The notes below the pieces were generated by a model that was not told where the DNA came from, did no database searches, and saw nothing but the letters and a program-made list of their open reading frames with translations. Positions 12,379 through 20,563 of a stretch of DNA of 45,238 nucleotides are shown in pieces (position 1 is the first letter of the stretch; each line of letters begins with the position of its first letter). The DNA comes from Chloroflexota bacterium. Lineage in GTDB: Bacteria > Chloroflexota > Anaerolineae > UBA1429. The stretch covers positions 1 to 45,238 of the forward strand of contig JAJFUJ010000062.1 of NCBI GenBank assembly GCA_021372475.1, in the 5' to 3' direction. Position numbers and translations under genes: made by a program.

Positions 12379-12407
12379 TTGACTATTCTTAAGTATTATG
12401 ATATATT
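12379..12407 (+). promoter_or_regulatory. Sigma-70 promoter of the ferritin/encapsulin island
   Basis: TTGACT (12379-12384) and TATATT (12402-12407) are spaced by 17 bases, each matching 5 of 6. The predicted transcript starts near 12414 and has a leader of about 104 bases before the first ferritin-like gene. Confidence 0.75.
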
Positions 12408-12417
12408 AGATAAGGAT

Positions 12418-12474
12418 ATGCAGCAGCTACCCAACTCCGGTGAGGGTATTGACGATAAGAGACTGGTAGCTTAG
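12418..12474 (+). other. Possible near-leaderless 18-codon reading frame and 7-bp stem in the island's 5' leader
   Basis: An ATG at 12418-12420 begins only ~4 bases after the predicted transcript start and runs 18 codons to TAG. AGCTACC (12425-12431) can pair with GGTAGCT (12465-12471), so a stem would span most of the frame. There is no good ribosome site except AAGG immediately upstream. It may be a regulatory leader or chance. Confidence 0.25.
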
Positions 12475-12517
12475 AATATCAAGTAAGCAACCGAGCTAAC
12501 AAGGAGAAAGTGAGAGA

Positions 12518-12988
12518 ATGTCAACAGCTACTAATCCGTTACAATCCATTATTCACACCGCTATTCAGCGCGAAATCGATGCACATGCGCTGTACACCAA
12601 CGCTGCTAAAATAGCAGCTACGCCGCACGCCCGTGATTTACTGCTGGATATGGCCGCTCAGGAATTGGGGCACCGTAACCGCCTCGAAGCCATGCTCAAA
12701 GGTGACACATTCAAAATTCTTACTAGAAAACAGCAAAAGCAGGTTGTCGACCTCAAGATCACAGATTATTTGGTTGAGGAACCGCTGAGCGCAGATTCGG
12801 ACCTGCAGGCGATTCTCATCATTGCAGGCAAACGCGAAAAGAGCAGCTTTGAGCTCTATTCGGCCTTGGCGCGCGTTGCCGGTGATGCGGATACCGTCAA
12901 GCTGTTCGAGTTCCTGGCTAATGAGGAATTAACGCACAAGCGCCGCGTTGAGATGATGTACGACGAGCTTGTCTACCAGGAAAATTAA
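12518..12988 (+). CDS. Ferritin-like (rubrerythrin-type) diiron protein
   Basis: This 156-residue four-helix bundle has a full set of diiron ligands: E19 (EIDAHALY), E49xxH52, E106 and E136xxH139. Rubrerythrin-like proteins reduce peroxide or oxidise iron. This one lacks its own rubredoxin domain, but a separate rubredoxin gene starts 26 bases downstream, so electron donation by that protein is likely. AAGGAG sits 12-17 bases before the ATG. It heads a run of iron and redox genes reaching to 20563. It has no encapsulin cargo tail (ends YDELVYQEN). Confidence 0.92.
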
Positions 12989-13014
12989 TCCCCATCAGAA
13001 ACAGGGAGGCCAAA

Positions 13015-13179
13015 ATGACCAAGTATGAGTGTTTAGTGTGCGGCTACGTCTATGATCCTGCGGTAGGCGACCCCGATAACGGTGTTGCTGCCGGGACCGC
13101 TTTCGAGAATTTGCCGGAAGACTGGGTTTGCCCAGAGTGCGGCGCAGCCAAGGATATGTTCGAGAAAATGGAAGGTTAG
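13015..13179 (+). CDS. Rubredoxin
   Basis: This 54-residue protein carries the single Fe(Cys)4 site: C6 and C9 in ECLVCGY and C39 and C42 in [10 protein letters not shown]. The [12 protein letters not shown] and FENLPEDW stretches are typical of rubredoxins. It transfers single electrons in the cytoplasm and would link the flavoprotein downstream to the rubrerythrin-type proteins around it. A GGGAGG ribosome site (13004-13009) precedes the ATG. A GC-rich hairpin lies between it and the reductase gene. Confidence 0.97.
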
Positions 13180-13225
13180 CCCGATAAGCTAACACGTACG
13201 GTAGAGCTGAGCAGTTTTATAGATA

Positions 13226-13261
13226 CCTGGAATCCAGGCCGGCTTTACGGATCGCCGGCCT
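13226..13261 (+). other. Mutually exclusive hairpins between rubredoxin and reductase genes
   Basis: CCTGG (13226-13230) can pair with CCAGG (13234-13238). Alternatively AGGCCGGC (13236-13243) pairs perfectly with GCCGGCCT (13254-13261) around a 10-base loop. The two share bases 13236-13238. No T tract follows, so a simple terminator is unlikely; an RNA-processing or stability element is possible. Confidence 0.45.
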
Positions 13262-13291
13262 AGTTATCTCTCAATATGCCGAGGTGCCTGC

Positions 13292-14497
13292 ATGAAGTTG
13301 GTAATTGTTGGAAATGGAATCGCTGGTACAACTTCAGCGCGCCTTGTCACTGAAAGAGATGCCTCTGTGGATGTTGAGGTATTTACCGATGAGCCATATC
13401 TGTATTACCCCCGCCCGAAACTGATCGATTTCTTAGCCGGTAAAGTGGAAACCTCTGCAATGCCACAGTACGGCGAGGACTGGTACCAAAAACGCGGCAT
13501 TCGCGTCCATTTAGGCAAGCGCGTCACTAGCATTGCAGCGGATACGCATCAAATCACCCTCCATGACGGAACTAGCGTCAAGTATGACTGTCTGCTGCTG
13601 GCAAATGGTGCATCCAGTTATATCCCGCAGATTGCCGGCGCTGAGCTTGGTATCCTTTCGCTGCGCACGCTGCAGGACGCCCTTAGCCTCAAAAAACAAG
13701 CACAGGCTGCTGAGCATGCCGTTATCCTCGGCGGAGGATTGTTGGGCCTTGACTTGGCGATGGCTCTCAAAGAGAATGGCTCAGAAGTCACCGTTGTAGA
13801 GATGATGCAGTGGCTGCTGCCACGCCAACTCGATGAGCAGGGGGCCAGCGCGTTGACTGCCCTCCTCACCCGCAGGGGATTGCGCATCATTACCAATGAC
13901 CAATGCGTTGAGGTAAAAGGGAATGGCCATGCCGAGCAGGTTATGCTCAAAAGCGGCATCTCCTTGCCAGCCGAACTGGTCGCGGTCTCAGCAGGCGTCC
14001 GTCCGAATATCCAACTCGCGCAGGCTGCCGGCTTAACCTGTAGTCGAGGGGTCGTGGTCGACGACTATATGCGTACCAGTGCGCCCGACATTTTTGCGGT
14101 CGGCGATATTGCAGAGCACAACAAGTGTGTCTTTGGCATTATCCCGGTTGCCCTGGCCCAAGCAAGAATAGGCGCTGCTGCTTTATGCGGCGATTTAACG
14201 AGCCCTTATCAGATGGTTGCCCCAAGCACGACGCTTAAAGTCACGGGGATTGACTTGGCTTCCATCGGCGAAGTTAATCCCGAGGCGCCAGGTTATAGCG
14301 AAATACGTGAGCGGGATGATGCGGCGGGCATTTACAAGAAGCTTGTCATCCGCAACGGCATTGTAGTTGGAGCCATTTTGCTGGGCGACCGAGCCAATGT
14401 GCGCAGCATCAATACCCTTATAGAAAGAAAGATACGAATTACTGGGCAGGAAAATCGACTTTTGGAGCCAGACCTGAATATTGCAAGTCTGAGTTGA
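13292..14497 (+). CDS. FAD-dependent NAD(P)H oxidoreductase, rubredoxin-reductase-like
   Basis: This 401-residue two-dinucleotide-domain flavoprotein has an FAD Rossmann fold at the N-terminus (VGNGIAGTTSA), an NAD(P)H-binding GGGLLGLDLA near residue 147, and FAD-binding DIFAVGDIAE near residue 270. It resembles rubredoxin, nitric oxide reductase or nitrite reductase-type reductases (NorW/NirB N-part). With rubredoxin 112 bases upstream, the natural reading is NAD(P)H:rubredoxin reductase. The C-terminus ends in LNIASLS, which resembles an encapsulin cargo-loading peptide (consensus about L-x-[IV]-G-S-L). That makes the enzyme a candidate second cargo. GAGGTG precedes the ATG, and the encapsulin cargo gene follows after 26 bases. 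Confidence 0.9.
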   Translation: MKLVIVGNGIAGTTSARLVTERDASVDVEVFTDEPYLYYPRPKLIDFLAGKVETSAMPQYGEDWYQKRGIRVHLGKRVTSIAADTHQITLHDGTSVKYDCLLLANGASSYIPQIAGAELGILSLRTLQDALSLKKQAQAAEHAVILGGGLLGLDLAMALKENGSEVTVVEMMQWLLPRQLDEQGASALTALLTRRGLRIITNDQCVEVKGNGHAEQVMLKSGISLPAELVAVSAGVRPNIQLAQAAGLTCSRGVVVDDYMRTSAPDIFAVGDIAEHNKCVFGIIPVALAQARIGAAALCGDLTSPYQMVAPSTTLKVTGIDLASIGEVNPEAPGYSEIRERDDAAGIYKKLVIRNGIVVGAILLGDRANVRSINTLIERKIRITGQENRLLEPDLNIASLS

Positions 14498-14523
14498 TAT
14501 TGGCATCATAAGGGGAGGTGAAT

Positions 14524-15459
14524 ATGACGAATCCAGAGATCATCGAATTATTACAGCAGGATATTCGAGGTGAACATCAAGCCATCGTGATGTATTTGAT
14601 GCATGCTTATGAAGTCGGCGAAAGTGGTCTGGCTGCAGAAATCGAAGCGATCGCCCGCGAAGAAATGCGGCATTTGGATTGGCTCGCAGATATTATCACT
14701 GGTCTCGGCGGGGAACCTAACATGGAGCCGGTTCCACCCGACTTCACAGCGGCTCCCCTAAACGAGCAGATGCTCAAGGATGTCGCCCTGGAAGAGGGGG
14801 CAGCTGCGCAATACCGCGAGCATATTGAGGCCATCGATGTTCCGGATATTCGCTTGCTCTTATCCCGGATTTTGCACGACGAGCTCGCCCATCACGGGAT
14901 GTTCGTCAAGTTTGTCGATGAAGTCAGCGAGATGACCAGTGTTATCGAAAAGGCTAACGCCGAAGGCGCCACGCTGGAACCGCGCACTGCGGATATCCTC
15001 AAGCAGGGCGTCCGCCACGAATATACCGTCACCTTGCAGTATCTCTTCCACGGTTTTATGACGAAGGACAAAGACTTGGCCGAAGATTGGCAGAATATCG
15101 CCATCAACGAAATGCAGCACATGGGCTGGCTATCCGAAGCGCTCACAGCCCGCGGCGGCCGGCCAGATTTTACGCATACCCCTTTGGTCCTCACCCCGGA
15201 TGCAGAGACAAACCTCAAGGCAGATATCGCTGTTGAACGCGATGTAACCAAGACGTACTCCCGGCATATTCCTGAAGTCGAGGACCCCGGCCTGGCAGAA
15301 CTGCTGGAGCGCATTCGTGACCATGAGATATATCATGACAATCAGTTCAGCGGATTGCTGGACCAAGTTGAGGATGAGGAACATACTGCTGGATGCCAGC
15401 CGGATACAGCAGCTCCATCCACCACAAAAAAGATCCCGACCGTCGGTAGCCTAAAGTAA
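14524..15459 (+). CDS. Tandem ferritin-like protein with encapsulin cargo-loading peptide
   Basis: This 311-residue protein is two four-helix ferritin-like domains in one chain. Domain 1 (about 1-135) has E17, E47xxH50, E91 and E120xxH123. Domain 2 (about 155-285) has E166, E196xxH199, E238 and E268xxH271. Both diiron sites look complete. A flexible tail follows (DTAAPSTTKK) and ends IPTVGSLK (304-311), nearly the TVGSL cargo-loading peptide of Myxococcus encapsulin cargo. Classic encapsulated ferritins are ~100-residue half-bundles, so this fused form is different. It would store iron or remove peroxide inside the shell encoded 27 bases downstream. The start ATG (14524) has AGGGGAGG upstream; an earlier in-frame GTG lies inside that ribosome site. 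Confidence 0.92.
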   Translation: MTNPEIIELLQQDIRGEHQAIVMYLMHAYEVGESGLAAEIEAIAREEMRHLDWLADIITGLGGEPNMEPVPPDFTAAPLNEQMLKDVALEEGAAAQYREHIEAIDVPDIRLLLSRILHDELAHHGMFVKFVDEVSEMTSVIEKANAEGATLEPRTADILKQGVRHEYTVTLQYLFHGFMTKDKDLAEDWQNIAINEMQHMGWLSEALTARGGRPDFTHTPLVLTPDAETNLKADIAVERDVTKTYSRHIPEVEDPGLAELLERIRDHEIYHDNQFSGLLDQVEDEEHTAGCQPDTAAPSTTKKIPTVGSLK

Positions 15460-15486
15460 CTAGTTGAGTCATTGCAGGAGGATAAA

Positions 15487-16263
15487 ATGGATGCTCTTTT
15501 AATGCGCGATGCCGCACCGTTCAGCTCCAAAGTTTGGGCGCAGATAGATGAGATGGTTGTAAATGTACTCAAGTCGATGCTGGTCGGCCGGCGCTTTATC
15601 GACCTGGTCGGCCCCCTTGGCTGGGGAACCGAAAATGTGCCGCTCACCAGTTTTACAGCGGTCGACGGTGCCTCTGTAGCCAAGGATGCAGTGTATGTTC
15701 CGCTCGTTGAAGTGAGCACCGACGCGGTGATAAAAGCCAAGCAATTGGCGATCGCAGAGGATACTCCCTTCGCTCTCGATCTGGGAGCCGTTGCGCTGGC
15801 AGCCGTAAACCTGGCCAGGGAAGAGGACAAGATTATAATTCACGGCCTGCTGGATGCCGGGAAAAAGAATACGGTGCCCCTCGGGGATTGGAACGCTTTC
15901 GGCGCTGCCTTCAAAGCCGTCGCAGCAGCAGCAGCAAAGCTACAGAATAGCGGATTTGATGCCCCTTATGTGCTCGTTTTGAACCCGGCTAGATATGCAC
16001 AGTTGGCCGGTTCGATGCAACAGGGCCGTGAGGAGCTGGAGATGGTGGAGCATCTGGTCGGCGGTGGAATTTTCCAGAGCCCGGTGATGCCTGAGGATAA
16101 AGTGCTCGTGCTGAGCCCCAAAAGCTGGAATATGGATCTGGTCGTCGGGCAAGATGCCGTGACGGCCTATACCGGCAACGCGGGGATGAACCAGTGCTTG
16201 CATCTCTTCGAAACGCTAGCCCTGCGCGTCAAGCTGGCCGGCTCGATCTTGGTTCTGGCGTAA
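15487..16263 (+). CDS. Family 1 encapsulin shell protein (linocin M18/HK97 fold)
   Basis: This 258-residue protein matches family 1 encapsulins. The N-terminal helix region (MDALLMRDAAPFSSKVW) binds cargo peptides in this family. It is followed by VGRRFIDLVGPLGWGTENV, VYVPLVEVS, EDKIIIHGL, GREELEMVEHLVGGGIFQSPV and a C-terminal CLHLFETLALRVKLAGSILVL, all in family order. The length suggests a 60-mer (T=1) shell of roughly 24 nm, although assembly cannot be read from sequence. AGGAGG (15476-15481) precedes the ATG. The cargo gene is directly upstream in the same operon, the usual arrangement. The next gene starts 97 bases downstream. Confidence 0.95.
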   Translation: MDALLMRDAAPFSSKVWAQIDEMVVNVLKSMLVGRRFIDLVGPLGWGTENVPLTSFTAVDGASVAKDAVYVPLVEVSTDAVIKAKQLAIAEDTPFALDLGAVALAAVNLAREEDKIIIHGLLDAGKKNTVPLGDWNAFGAAFKAVAAAAAKLQNSGFDAPYVLVLNPARYAQLAGSMQQGREELEMVEHLVGGGIFQSPVMPEDKVLVLSPKSWNMDLVVGQDAVTAYTGNAGMNQCLHLFETLALRVKLAGSILVLA

Positions 16264-16360
16264 CCTTATAAAGGTATCGTCCCAAGGCTCCCAGACAAGG
16301 GACGCTGCTCGGATATCTTGTGCACTCGATCTACTTCGAGGCACCTGGGGAGTTGTTATT

Positions 16361-18097
16361 ATGCCGATAAACGATATGTCTTTCCGCATCGGCGGAGAAG
16401 CCGGGCAGGGAGTTGAATCAAGCGGCACCGGCTTTGCCAAAGCCCTTACCAGGGCTGGGCTTTATACAATGGCTGTGCCCGATTACTACTCCAGAATCCG
16501 CGGCGGACATAACTTTTTCACCATTCGTGTGTCCGAAAAGCCTGTCTATGCCGTACAAGATGGCATTCAAGTGCTCATCGCACTCAATGCCGAGACAGTG
16601 GCGCGCCATATAGAACATCTCGTCCCAGGGGGCGCGGTCATTATCGATAAGGGCATTGCCTTTGATATGTCGCTGCTGGCTGGCCGCGATATCCGCCTGC
16701 TGCAGGCGCCGCTGGCAGAAATTGCGCGCGCCGAAGGTGATGAAGTGATGGTGAATACCGCCGGTCTTGCAGTTATGGCAGGATTGACAGAATTCGACCT
16801 GGAATATGTCATCGGCGTGATTGCAGACGGTTTTGGTAAAAAGGGCACGGGGATTATTGAAGCCAACCATCGCGTGGCAGCCGCCGCACACGCTTGGGTA
16901 CGTGAGCATCATCCTGATTTCCCCTGGCGAATCCAGGCGCAGGCCGCCCCCAAACGCCTGACGGTCAACGCCAACCAGGCATTTGCCCTGGGCGCGCTGA
17001 TGGCCGGCTGCAAGTTCGTGGCTGGTTACCCGATGACCCCCACGACGCCGGTGCTGGAGTATATGGCTCAACATGCCGATGTCTGGGGTTTGGTAATGAA
17101 GCAAGCCGAGAGCGAGGTCGCTGCGATCAATATGGTGGTTGGCGCTGCTAACGCGGGCGTCCGCGCCATGACAGCCACTTCAGGCGGCGGCTTTGATTTG
17201 ATGACCGAGGGGTTATCGCTGGCTGCAATGATGGAAAGTCCGGTCGTCGTGTTTTTAGGGCAGAGGCCCGGCCCGGCTACCGGATTGCCCACGCGCAGCA
17301 ACCAGGCTGATCTCAATCTGGCTTTGTACGCTGGGCACGGCGAGTTCTCACGTATTGTGCTCTCCCCGCATACGATACCCGAGTTTTACTCTTGCGGTAT
17401 CAGGGCATTCAACCTTGCCGAGAAATACCAGTGCCCGGTGCTGGTGCTGAGCGACCATCTGATCTCCAGCTCATACCAGACGGTGGAAGCTGCCGATATT
17501 GATCTGGATAATCTGACCATCGACCGCGGTAAGCTGCTAAGCCCGGCACAAGTCGATGCGATGCCGAACTATAAACGCTTTGCACTGACGGATGACGGCG
17601 TTTCGCCACGGGCGATTCCTGCCAGCAGCAGGAATGCGGTCTTTCTTACGACAGGCGATGAGCACGATGAGGAAGGGCATATCACAGAGGATCCCATCAT
17701 CGCCTCCAGGATGACGGAAAAACGCCTGGCCAAGATGAAGGCAGCTCTCGTAGATATGCGCCCGCCTTTCCGCTTCGGCCCTGAACAAGCCGATCTCACC
17801 TTTATCTGCTGGGGAGCGACATACGGTCCGGTAGTGGAAGCCGCTAAGGAACTCTCAAAACAAGGTACTAGCGCAAACGTGTTGTGCTTCGTGGATATCT
17901 GGCCTTTCCCGGTTGCGCTAGCTCAGGCTGCCCTATCAGGCGCCAGGCCCCTTGTCAGTGTTGAAGCCAACGCGAGGGGTCAGTTTGCGCACCTGCTGCA
18001 GGCCGAGGCAGGGATCAAGGTACAGCAGCAGATCCTGCGCTATGACGGACGCGGATTCACGCCGGATTACATCCTGGCGCACCTGGAGGCAGTGTAA
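16361..18097 (+). CDS. 2-oxoacid:ferredoxin oxidoreductase, fused gamma-alpha subunit (KorA type)
   Basis: This 578-residue protein starts with a gamma domain (about 1-190: IGGEAGQGVESSG, DYYSRIRGGHNF). The alpha pyrimidine-binding domain follows, with GYPMTPTTPVLEYM near residue 223, EVAAINMVVGAANAGVRAMTATSGGGFDLM near 252 and GPATGLPTRSNQADL near 305. With KorB it makes an oxygen-sensitive TPP enzyme that converts 2-oxoglutarate (or a related 2-oxoacid) and CoA to acyl-CoA and reduced ferredoxin. Substrate cannot be fixed from sequence. The start ATG has GGGGAG about ten bases upstream. KorB follows after one base. Confidence 0.95.
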   Translation: MPINDMSFRIGGEAGQGVESSGTGFAKALTRAGLYTMAVPDYYSRIRGGHNFFTIRVSEKPVYAVQDGIQVLIALNAETVARHIEHLVPGGAVIIDKGIAFDMSLLAGRDIRLLQAPLAEIARAEGDEVMVNTAGLAVMAGLTEFDLEYVIGVIADGFGKKGTGIIEANHRVAAAAHAWVREHHPDFPWRIQAQAAPKRLTVNANQAFALGALMAGCKFVAGYPMTPTTPVLEYMAQHADVWGLVMKQAESEVAAINMVVGAANAGVRAMTATSGGGFDLMTEGLSLAAMMESPVVVFLGQRPGPATGLPTRSNQADLNLALYAGHGEFSRIVLSPHTIPEFYSCGIRAFNLAEKYQCPVLVLSDHLISSSYQTVEAADIDLDNLTIDRGKLLSPAQVDAMPNYKRFALTDDGVSPRAIPASSRNAVFLTTGDEHDEEGHITEDPIIASRMTEKRLAKMKAALVDMRPPFRFGPEQADLTFICWGATYGPVVEAAKELSKQGTSANVLCFVDIWPFPVALAQAALSGARPLVSVEANARGQFAHLLQAEAGIKVQQQILRYDGRGFTPDYILAHLEAV

Positions 18098-18098
18098 G

Positions 18099-18977
18099 AT
18101 GGCAACCGTCAAGGATTTCAGCAATAATGTGCGTCCGACCTGGTGCCCCGGCTGCGGTGATTATGGGATATGGAACGCGCTCAAACGCGCCCTGGTAGAT
18201 GCCGGGCTTGAACCTGAGCAGGTGATGGTGGTCACCGGAATCGGCTGCGGCAGCAAGACGCCGGATTATATGCACGTCCCGGGGCTGAACGGTCTGCATG
18301 GCCGCACCCTGGCATTAGCCACCGGCTACAAGCTGGCCAACCATACCATGCAAGTTGTGGCCATCCACGGCGATGGCGATGGATACAGCATGGGCGCCAA
18401 CCATTTTATCCAGGCTATCCGTCGTAACATTGGCATCCTGGATATCGTGCAAAACAACCATGTATACGGCCTCACCAAAGGGCAATATTCGCCCACCAGC
18501 CGCAGCGGTTTTGTGAGCAAGACGTCGCCGGATGGAGCAATTGAACGGCCGATGAATCCTCTGGCGTTGGCTATTTCGCAAGGCGCAACGTTCGTAGCGC
18601 GCGGCTTTGCGCTCGATATCGCTCAGCTATCAAAACTCATCGTTGCTGGCTTAAACCATCGTGGCTATGCCTTAATCGATGTTATGCAGGTGTGCGTGTC
18701 GTTCAATCGTTCGATGAGTTACGAGTGGTATCGCGAGCATGTGTACCAGGTTGCCGATGCCAACCACGCCCCTGCTGACCGCGATGCTGCCTTGCAAATC
18801 GCCTTTCAATATCCGGGGGCGGACGGCAAAATTCCTCTGGGCATTATTTATCAGGATGAATCTGTGCCGTCATACGAGGAAAGGGTGCCCGCCTTGCAGG
18901 CCGGCGCATTGGCTGCCCAGCCTCTGCACTCCAGGCCGGCAGCCGATTATCACCAGTTGATCGAGGAGCTGTACTAG
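18099..18977 (+). CDS. 2-oxoacid:ferredoxin oxidoreductase, beta subunit (KorB type)
   Basis: This 292-residue subunit holds the TPP site (IHGDGDGYSMGANHF, residues ~89-103, continuing to the Asn of QNNHVYG) and the [4Fe-4S] ligands C16 and C19 (WCPGCG) and C50 (GIGCGSK). A later Cys in QVCVSFN is probably the fourth ligand. It lacks the CoA and ferredoxin extensions of larger PFORs. The ATG at 18099 gives the family start MATVKDFSNNVRPTWCPGCG and directly follows the KorA stop, with GGAGG inside korA as ribosome site. A longer frame from 17952 has no family support. Confidence 0.96.
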   Translation: MATVKDFSNNVRPTWCPGCGDYGIWNALKRALVDAGLEPEQVMVVTGIGCGSKTPDYMHVPGLNGLHGRTLALATGYKLANHTMQVVAIHGDGDGYSMGANHFIQAIRRNIGILDIVQNNHVYGLTKGQYSPTSRSGFVSKTSPDGAIERPMNPLALAISQGATFVARGFALDIAQLSKLIVAGLNHRGYALIDVMQVCVSFNRSMSYEWYREHVYQVADANHAPADRDAALQIAFQYPGADGKIPLGIIYQDESVPSYEERVPALQAGALAAQPLHSRPAADYHQLIEELY

Positions 18978-18980
18978 AAT

Positions 18981-19493
18981 ATGCAGGTAGTAGTATATAC
19001 AACACCATCCTGTCCGTACTGTGTCCAGGTGAAAGATTTTCTTTCCCAACAGGGCATACAGTATAATGAACACGATGTATCGCAGGATGCCGCCGCAGCG
19101 GCAGAGATGGTGCGCCTAAGCGGTCAGCGCGGAGTACCGGTAACCGTTATTGACGGCACTGTGGTAGTAGGTTTTGATAGGCGGCACCTTGAACAGTTGA
19201 TTGGGCAGGCCCAACGTCCACATTTAGGGGCATCCGTAACGGATGCTTCAAGTATGGTGCGCCCCGGCCAAACCGAGGTCGTTGAAGGCGCTTATATCGG
19301 GCGCTTGCGCGCCGGCTCCCCTGCAGCACAAGCAGGCTTACAGGTGGGGGATATCATTATTGCTATCGGCGGGCATTCTGTACGTTCGGCGTTCGATCTA
19401 GAATCGATTGTCGCCCGCATCAAACCTGGCCAAATGGTCAGCATACGCGTCCGCCGGTTGAATATGGAACACGAAGTGAAAATGAAATTCTAG
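18981..19493 (+). CDS. Glutaredoxin-PDZ fusion protein
   Basis: This 170-residue protein is a glutaredoxin fold (about 1-80) with the redox motif C11-P-Y-C14 and the cis-Pro block RGVPVTVIDG. It is followed by a PDZ domain (about 85-170: EGAYIGRLRAGSPAAQAGLQVGDIIIAIGG, split here over its carboxylate-binding loop and central strands). There is no signal peptide or membrane helix, so it is cytoplasmic. PDZ domains bind C-terminal tails, so the glutaredoxin may be directed to specific partners. The start is three bases after the korB stop, which puts it in the same transcript; it may repair or protect the iron-sulfur enzyme. The fusion is unusual. Confidence 0.85.
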   Translation: MQVVVYTTPSCPYCVQVKDFLSQQGIQYNEHDVSQDAAAAAEMVRLSGQRGVPVTVIDGTVVVGFDRRHLEQLIGQAQRPHLGASVTDASSMVRPGQTEVVEGAYIGRLRAGSPAAQAGLQVGDIIIAIGGHSVRSAFDLESIVARIKPGQMVSIRVRRLNMEHEVKMKF

Positions 19494-19512
19494 TCCGCAT
19501 GAGGAGGTCTCC

Positions 19513-20004
19513 ATGTCAGCTATCGATTCACTCCATGTGCTTAGCCAGGCCGCCAGGCTAGAGACGGAGGGATTGGCTTTTTACCTAAAAGCAGCCGCAG
19601 AGACGGTCGATCCCAGAGGCAAGGCACTGTTTATGTCTCTTGCAGACGATGAGCGTAAACACAAGGATATGATTCTCACCCAGCTCCATGCGGTGGAAGG
19701 GGATGGCATGTATGTGCTGCTCCCTAACCTGAATGTCGAGCCGATCGATTTGGGGCAACCGTTATTCCCACCATCTGTTGCAGATGTCGAAAAGAAAATC
19801 GGTGCCGATCCCACCGAGCAGGAAGTGCTTTTCCTGGCGATGGAAAACGAAATCAAGAGTTATGACCTTTACCGTGTTGAGGTTCCAAAAACCACAGGCC
19901 CTGCCCAGCAAATGTATCGATGGTTGGCCAGCGCCGAGATGACCCACTTTAACCTATTGATGTCCAATTGGGAAGCACTAGAAGCTCGCGGCACCTGGGT
20001 ATAG
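19513..20004 (+). CDS. Ferritin-like (rubrerythrin-domain) protein
   Basis: This 163-residue four-helix protein has diiron ligands E17 (ETEGLAFY), E47xxH50 (ERKH), a Glu in the EIKSYDLY segment near residue 116, and ExxH in AEMTH near residue 142. It resembles rubrerythrin-domain proteins of the family that also includes the neighbouring 20033-20563 gene, and has a ~35-residue insertion between the two helix pairs. AGGAGG lies just upstream of the ATG. It is expected to handle peroxide or iron in the cytoplasm and has no cargo peptide (ends ALEARGTWV). Confidence 0.9.
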   Translation: MSAIDSLHVLSQAARLETEGLAFYLKAAAETVDPRGKALFMSLADDERKHKDMILTQLHAVEGDGMYVLLPNLNVEPIDLGQPLFPPSVADVEKKIGADPTEQEVLFLAMENEIKSYDLYRVEVPKTTGPAQQMYRWLASAEMTHFNLLMSNWEALEARGTWV

Positions 20005-20032
20005 CCTGTACATATAAAAGGAAGCGTCACCT

Positions 20033-20563
20033 ATGGATAATCAGAAAGCTCTCGAAGCACTAAAGCTTGGTATGAATACTGAAATCTGGGGTTTGAACTT
20101 TTACCAGCAAGCGCTCACTCGTACCACCGACAAAACCGGCAAAGAGGTATTTAAGAGCCTGATTGCCGAGGAGGAGTCTCACCTCAAGGTTTTGCGCGGC
20201 CAATACGGCGCGCTGTCGGACCGTAAATCGGGCTGGATCAGCCGTGAAGATGCGCTAAAGCTGGCCAGCTCCGTTGAACCGGCGGATATTTTCCCAGCGC
20301 CTGAAGCGGTTGGCAAGCTTATTCAAGCTGCCGCTACCGACCTGGAAGTGCTCGAGATGGCCATGGAATTCGAGCACAAAGGCTATGTTCTCTACCAGAA
20401 AGAAGCGTCAACTGCCGACGATCCTGAAGCCATGAAAATGTGGTCCTATCTCGCCAAAGCTGAGAACAAACACTATACCTTCATTCAGCAGACCCACGAA
20501 TACCTGTCAACCAACGGTGCGTGGTACTTTGACGAGAAGGAAAAACCATTCTTTGAAGGCTGA
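20033..20563 (+). CDS. Ferritin-like (rubrerythrin-domain) protein
   Basis: This 176-residue protein is a paralogue of the preceding gene. Diiron ligands are E17 (EIWGLNFY), E47xxH50 (EESH), a Glu in the FEHKGYVLY segment near residue 119, and ExxH in AENKH near 150. Both proteins have ligand pairs at the same residue numbers, supporting duplication. A 28-base gap with AAAAGGAAG ribosome site follows the first copy. The tail KEKPFFEG is charged and lacks a cargo motif. Confidence 0.9.
   Translation: MDNQKALEALKLGMNTEIWGLNFYQQALTRTTDKTGKEVFKSLIAEEESHLKVLRGQYGALSDRKSGWISREDALKLASSVEPADIFPAPEAVGKLIQAAATDLEVLEMAMEFEHKGYVLYQKEASTADDPEAMKMWSYLAKAENKHYTFIQQTHEYLSTNGAWYFDEKEKPFFEG

What the first reader, a model, noticed from the sequence alone, without database searches (positions are those of the whole stretch)
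14524..16263. Encapsulin nanocompartment with a fused double-ferritin cargo
The cargo gene directly upstream of a family 1 encapsulin encodes two complete ferritin-like domains in one chain (ligand sets E17/E47/H50/E91/E120/H123 and E166/E196/H199/E238/E268/H271) and ends in TVGSLK, a near match to the known cargo peptide TVGSL. Known encapsulated ferritins are small half-bundles that assemble into rings. A tandem full-length version would load and arrange iron centres differently, and could be a new cargo class or a peroxide-scavenging variant.
Basis: partly seen in the sequence, partly recalled or inferred. Interest (0 to 1): 0.88.

Follow-up and report, generated by a model that had tools for sequence, protein, structure and literature searches.

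The report
Known double-ferritin encapsulin cargo, new member
A Chloroflexota bacterium carries a protein-shell compartment gene next to a two-in-one ferritin that almost certainly loads into it to handle iron; this cargo type was already described from genomes, but nobody has yet characterised it at the bench in any paper I could find.

Summary
A 311-aa protein (14524-15459) with two complete ferritin-like bundles and a C-terminal IPTVGSLK tail lies 27 nt upstream of a family 1 encapsulin (15487-16263). One residue needs correcting: the third ligand of site 1 is E90 (invariant), not E91 (variable).

The interpretation "encapsulated double ferritin" is well supported. In 39 Chloroflexota relatives, all 20 with a TVGSL-like tail have an encapsulin on the same contig. 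All 19 without the tail lack a nearby encapsulin. None of 1655 other ORFs in the same loci ends in the motif.

"New cargo class" is not supported. Giessen & Silver 2017 (as cited in PMC11202242) named it Flp+Flp. Andreas & Giessen 2021 list two-bundle bacterioferritin cargos in Firmicutes, Aquificae, Chloroflexi and Cyanobacteria.

Details I did not find described: both diiron sites are complete in this clade, whereas the 2024 review calls the second bundle variable; the bacterioferritin haem-ligand methionine is invariant in both bundles (M48, M197); helix E is absent; and a conserved operon carries rubrerythrins, a rubredoxin-reductase-like flavoprotein and a 2-oxoacid oxidoreductase.

Likely function: ferroxidase and iron store of an anaerobe. 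It is a new member of a known, bench-uncharacterised kind.

The parts
14524..15459 (+). Double-bundle ferritin-like (Bfr-like, 'Flp+Flp') encapsulin cargo, 311 aa plus stop
   Evidence: PF00210/PF02915 hits; full-length match to tandem PDB chain 9viw_A E=2e-39; AF2 mean pLDDT 91.9; 39 homologues
14530..14928 (+). Bundle 1 (residues 3-135): diiron ligands E17, E47, H50, E90, E120, H123; M48 at the Bfr haem-Met position
   Evidence: alignments; AF2 helices 3-31, 35-60, 79-103, 107-133
14971..15390 (+). Bundle 2 (residues 150-289): diiron ligands E166, E196, H199, E238, E268, H271; M197 at the Bfr haem-Met position; no helix E
   Evidence: VIA-align Z 21 to mini-bacterioferritin
15433..15456 (+). 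C-terminal targeting peptide IPTVGSLK after a disordered linker
   Evidence: conserved in 20/20 encapsulin-linked homologues, absent in 19/19 others
15487..16263 (+). Family 1 encapsulin shell protein, 258 aa
   Evidence: PF04454, NF041155; closest solved sequence M. xanthus EncA E=5e-36; fold match to EncA; only encapsulin in the genome
12518..12988 (+). Rubrerythrin-like protein (rbr1), conserved first gene of the operon
   Evidence: PF02915; synteny
13292..14497 (+). FAD oxidoreductase of the NADH:rubredoxin-reductase type; candidate electron donor
   Evidence: PF07992 + PF18267 Rubredoxin_C; conserved upstream of the cargo; no conserved targeting tail
16361..18097 (+). 2-oxoacid:acceptor oxidoreductase alpha subunit
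   Evidence: TIGR03710 618 bits; conserved downstream
18099..18977 (+). 2-oxoacid:acceptor oxidoreductase beta subunit
   Evidence: TIGR02177 328 bits
18981..19493 (+). Glutaredoxin-PDZ fusion protein
   Evidence: PF00462 + PDZ
19513..20004 (+). Rubrerythrin-like protein (rbr2)
   Evidence: PF02915
20018..20563 (+). Second rbr2-like protein (stop-to-stop frame plus stop; start not determined)
   Evidence: phmmer to rbr2, 57 bits

Best explanation
This is a family 1 encapsulin iron compartment whose dedicated cargo is the already described two-bundle 'Bfr-like / Flp+Flp' ferritin. The cargo folds as two bacterioferritin-type four-helix bundles in one chain. Each bundle holds a complete diiron ferroxidase site, and a disordered linker ends in IPTVGSLK, which docks on the inner face of the shell. 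Fe(II) entering through the shell is oxidised at both sites by O2 or H2O2 and mineralised under the shell. Reduced iron is probably returned with electrons from the co-operonic flavoprotein or ferredoxin system, while the rubrerythrins remove peroxide. Shown here: gene anatomy, both ligand sets, the fold prediction, the tail-shell association, the conserved operon, and that this is the only PF00210 ferritin found in the genome. Inferred: loading, ferroxidase activity, iron storage, electron route.
For: Family and domain hits. Both EEHEEH ligand sets are invariant in 31 relatives (31/31 for site 1; site 2 also present, as far as covered, in a truncated 32nd) and in 37 of 39 once two divergent homologues are added. 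AF2 model of two bundles, pLDDT 91.9, matching Bfr and mini-Bfr. Tail and encapsulin coincide in 20/20 and are both absent in 19/19, with no other ORF in the loci carrying the motif. 18 of 19 tail-less genomes have no family 1 encapsulin anywhere; the exception has an encapsulin with its own small Flp cargo ending TTIGSLKE. The tail stands after a linker of 18% identity, against 48-51% in the bundles. The cargo is the only PF00210 protein in a 98%-complete genome. The class is described in PMC8346489 and PMC11202242.
Against: No experiment. The single-chain AF2 run with the tail read through into the shell did not dock the tail (tail pLDDT 30-43), which is inconclusive. Relatedness weakens the association test: the tree gives only 3-5 independent changes, and 3/3 pairs agree with p=0.25.
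Confidence: 0.85

Rival explanations
1. Peroxide or O2 scavenger: the tandem diiron cargo acts mainly as an encapsulated rubrerythrin-like peroxidase fed by the adjacent rubredoxin-reductase-type flavoprotein, and iron storage is minor.
For: Neighbours are rubrerythrins and a NADH:rubredoxin-reductase-like flavoprotein; in one relative (L012) that flavoprotein ends in a rubredoxin-like CPMCG segment.
Against: The ligand sets and best structural and family matches are bacterioferritin type, not rubrerythrin type; no rubredoxin domain in the cargo; no other PF00210 ferritin in the genome to store iron.
Confidence: 0.15
2. Cage within a shell: the cargo assembles into a closed ferritin cage (12 tandem chains as a pseudo-24-mer, or 6 as a pseudo-12-mer of the mini-bacterioferritin kind) inside the encapsulin, with iron stored inside the inner cage.
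For: PMC11202242 models a 12-chain pseudo-24-mer. Here each bundle lacks helix E and matches 12-mer mini-bacterioferritin best, which favours a pseudo-12-mer if a cage forms.
Against: Assembly could not be modelled. Mini-Bfr's signature His29 is not present in either bundle (A28 in 38 of 39; G177 variable). The chain could remain a free pseudo-dimer.
Confidence: 0.35
3. The adjacency is incidental: a cytosolic tandem ferritin beside an encapsulin that carries something else.
For: Tandem homologues without tail or shell exist (Dehalococcoidia), and a tandem PDB entry exists (9viw).
Against: Perfect tail-shell association and no other ORF with a targeting motif in the loci.
Confidence: 0.02

Closest known systems
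Two-bundle Bfr / 'Flp+Flp' encapsulin cargos (Giessen & Silver 2017, as cited in PMC11202242; Andreas & Giessen 2021, PMC8346489)
   Same: Two four-helix bundles in one chain, C-terminal targeting peptide, family 1 encapsulin operon, Chloroflexi named among hosts
   Different: The review states the second bundle generally has a variable centre; here both diiron sites are complete in the whole clade
Tandem 'Bacterioferritin' in PDB entry 9viw (306 aa)
   Same: Full-length two-bundle homologue (phmmer E=2e-39)
   Different: No paper found; several site-2 ligands differ in the printed alignment (the 'AINEMQHMG' stretch reads 'AIESMFHMG'); the aligned part ends before the tail, so encapsulation status is unknown
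Mini-bacterioferritin of Ca. Methanoperedens (PDB 9qq4; PMC13168243)
   Same: Bundle fold (Z 21, rmsd 1.5, 130 residues), canonical diiron site, haem-ligand Met position, no helix E
   Different: Single bundle; signature His29 absent here; no targeting tail
EncFtn/Flp cargos (R. rubrum, H. ochraceum, T. maritima, M. xanthus EncB/EncC)
   Same: Ferritin-like family 1 encapsulin cargo with a C-terminal targeting peptide; weak NCBIfam EncB_fam hit (56 of 90 bits needed)
   Different: They are half-bundles that form decamers with the diiron site at the subunit interface
M. xanthus EncA shell
   Same: Closest solved shell by sequence (E=5e-36) and fold
   Different: Window shell is shorter (258 vs 287 aa); triangulation number unknown

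Membership tests
Family 1 encapsulin shell | encap_f1 / Linocin_M18 profile above curated cut-off | tested here: met
   193 bits vs 100; 183 vs 24.3
Family 1 encapsulin shell | HK97 fold like solved encapsulins | tested here: met
   Foldseek E=2e-25 to M. xanthus EncA
Family 1 encapsulin shell | Self-assembly into icosahedral shells | not testable with these tools
   -
Two-bundle Bfr-like (Flp+Flp) encapsulin cargo | Two four-helix bundles in one chain | tested here: met
   AF2 pLDDT 91.9, eight long helices
Two-bundle Bfr-like (Flp+Flp) encapsulin cargo | C-terminal targeting peptide next to a family 1 shell | tested here: met
Two-bundle Bfr-like (Flp+Flp) encapsulin cargo | Conserved diiron site in the first bundle | tested here: met
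   E17/E47/H50/E90/E120/H123 in 39/39
Two-bundle Bfr-like (Flp+Flp) encapsulin cargo | Docking of the peptide in the shell groove | tested here: inconclusive
   tail not docked in single-chain AF2, pLDDT 30-43
Bacterioferritin (canonical 24-mer) | C-terminal helix E | tested here: not met
   no long fifth helix after either bundle
Bacterioferritin (canonical 24-mer) | TIGR00754 bfr cut-off | tested here: not met
   48 bits vs 125.55
Bacterioferritin (canonical 24-mer) | Haem-ligand methionine | tested here: met
   M48 and M197 in 39/39; haem itself not tested
Mini-bacterioferritin | His29, Gly34, Met52 signature and no terminal extensions | tested here: not met
   Met met in both bundles; Gly mostly in bundle 1 only; His absent; C-terminal extension present
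EncFtn/Flp half-bundle cargo | Short two-helix subunit, NF058679/TIGR04535 cut-off | tested here: not met
   56 vs 90 and 38 vs 125 bits; full bundles

The most novel reading that the evidence does not exclude
The fused pair of bundles is a built-in bacterioferritin dimer that clamps one haem between M48 and M197, so the cargo is a haem ferritin inside an encapsulin: two ferroxidase sites plus an internal electron conduit, fed by the co-transcribed flavoprotein / 2-oxoacid oxidoreductase chain to release iron from the shell, possibly as a pseudo-12-mer cage within the shell.
Probability: 0.3. Interest if true: 0.65.

Novelty: new member of a known kind. Interest (0 to 1): 0.38.

Why it matters
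The two-bundle encapsulin cargos have been predicted since 2017 but I found no published bench characterisation. This clade is a good test system: both diiron sites are intact, tail-bearing and tail-less natural homologues exist as matched controls, and the operon suggests where the electrons for iron release come from. It would settle whether such cargos form a cage inside a shell and whether an encapsulated ferritin can carry haem.

Tried and rejected
1) New cargo class: rejected, the literature already names it. 2) Docking test by reading through the in-frame cargo stop (TAA as Gly) into the shell for one AF2 chain: shell folded, tail stayed disordered; inconclusive, and the tool gave no coordinates to measure. 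3) Flavoprotein as second cargo because the window copy ends NIASLS: rejected, that end is not conserved in relatives. 4) Plasmid-borne relatives: none. 5) Paper for PDB 9viw: none found; the five text hits are chance strings. 6) Mini-bacterioferritin membership: the His29 signature fails, so not filed there. 7) Haem geometry (M48-M197 distance) could not be measured from the model. 8) Homologues in Firmicutes, Aquificae and Cyanobacteria could not be fetched, so the 'second site variable' statement of the review could only be compared with two divergent Chloroflexota homologues, L052 and L053, whose second site is indeed degraded.

Full report
What is there. The window is contig C134 of a 3.26-Mb, 98%-complete genome whose relatives are all Chloroflexota, mostly Anaerolineae. 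The cargo gene (14524-15459, +) starts with ATG after GGGGAGG and codes for 311 aa. The encapsulin gene (15487-16263) follows after 27 nt with its own AGGAGG. Pfam finds ferritin/rubrerythrin-type domains twice in the cargo and Linocin_M18 in the shell; NCBIfam calls the shell encap_f1 well above its cut-off. It is the only encapsulin in the genome, and the cargo is the only PF00210 ferritin found there.

Ligands. Aligning both bundles with each other and with E. coli bacterioferritin gives E17/E47/H50/E90/E120/H123 and E166/E196/H199/E238/E268/H271. All twelve ligands are present in 37 of 39 full-length homologues. The two exceptions are the divergent L052 (E196S) and L053 (E196H, E268N, H271Q).

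Tail. Twenty homologues (the window's included) end in a TVGSL-like peptide (TVGSL, SVGSL, SIGSL, PIGSL, TVGTL, TIGTL, SIGGL, SVGKL). In 19 of these the encapsulin is the next gene downstream; in L051 it lies 4.3 kb downstream on the same strand. Nineteen homologues stop shortly after bundle 2 or, as in L032, run on into unrelated sequence without the motif; none has an encapsulin nearby. A whole-genome search of these 19 found none in 18 (assemblies are partly incomplete). The exception, G450, has an encapsulin elsewhere with its own small half-bundle cargo ending TTIGSLKE. No other ORF of 80 aa or more in the loci (1655 tested) ends in the motif, and shuffled tails give it in 0.04% of draws. 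The linker before the tail is 18% identical between relatives while the bundles are 48-51% identical. On a maximum-likelihood tree the tail needs 5 changes, at least 3 on well-supported branches, and shell presence follows each (3/3 independent pairs, p=0.25, so relatedness limits the statistics).

Fold. AF2 with 31 homologues gives mean pLDDT 91.9: two four-helix bundles (3-133, 153-291), a disordered linker, and no helix E. The best structural matches are mini-bacterioferritin of Ca. Methanoperedens (Z 21, rmsd 1.5 over 130 residues, aligned to bundle 2) and bacterioferritins; bundle 1 was matched by sequence rather than tested alone by fold. A tandem 306-aa PDB chain named Bacterioferritin (9viw_A) matches over the full length; I found no paper on it. 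The shell model matches M. xanthus EncA best. An attempt to dock the tail in one read-through chain was inconclusive.

Haem hint. M48 and M197 occupy the position of the bacterioferritin haem ligand (Met52 in E. coli numbering; Met50 in mini-Bfr, PMC13168243). Both are invariant in 39/39, including L052 and L053 where diiron ligands of bundle 2 are lost. The residue aligned with the mini-Bfr propionate-binding Tyr28 is Y29 in bundle 1 (38/39) and F, Y or W in bundle 2. The Arg13 equivalent is hydrophobic, which that paper links with a haem other than coproheme. This is sequence evidence only; the distance between the two methionines could not be measured.

Operon. In three relatives whose contigs are long enough (L018, L020, L041) the same nine genes stand in the same order: rubrerythrin, flavoprotein, cargo, encapsulin, 2-oxoacid oxidoreductase alpha and beta, glutaredoxin-PDZ, two rubrerythrin-like genes. 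Most others of this clade keep the part their contig covers. More distant tail-bearing relatives (Thermoflexus and kin) keep only cargo, encapsulin and usually a rubrerythrin. No neighbour carries a conserved targeting tail. This is an oxidative-stress and iron island of probable anaerobes; which neighbour feeds electrons to the compartment is inference.

What is known. [quoted passage not shown] PMC11202242 (2024) calls them Bfr-like FLPs, earlier named Flp+Flp in Giessen & Silver 2017, models a 12-chain cage, and says only the first bundle generally keeps the diiron site. The window protein belongs to that kind. What I did not find described is the completeness of both sites in this clade, the invariant methionine pair, the helix-E-less mini-Bfr-like bundles, the natural tail-less sister proteins and the conserved operon.

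Verdict. Observation right apart from one residue number. Encapsulated double ferritin very likely right. New class wrong. Mechanism: ferroxidase and iron storage in the shell, confidence about 0.85 for the cargo assignment together with this role; cage-in-shell and haem remain open.

Noticed in passing
window 12518-20563: Nine-gene cluster around the encapsulin (three rubrerythrin-like genes, rubredoxin-reductase-type flavoprotein, 2-oxoacid oxidoreductase alpha/beta, glutaredoxin-PDZ fusion) conserved in order in related Anaerolineae.
   Followed up: partly
window 18981-19493: Glutaredoxin (YruB / Uxx-star type, with CPYC) fused to a PDZ domain; unusual domain pairing.
   Followed up: no
L012 3-1223: The homologous flavoprotein ends in a rubredoxin-like segment (CPMCG), suggesting a fused reductase-rubredoxin.
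   Followed up: no
L024, L026-L035, L045, L048-L050: Dehalococcoidia and related Chloroflexota carry a tail-less tandem ferritin with both diiron sites and, with one exception, no encapsulin in the genome: a free form of the same protein.
   Followed up: partly
L052, L053: Divergent homologues have lost ligands of the second diiron site but keep both haem-position methionines.
   Followed up: partly
L080 1091-2274: A Chloroflexota encapsulin with a classical half-bundle Flp cargo ending TTIGSLKE, in a genome that also has a tail-less tandem ferritin.
   Followed up: no
window 12379-12477: Two promoter-like sites (10 of 12 matches) just upstream of the first operon gene; total count is close to the chance level.
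   Followed up: no
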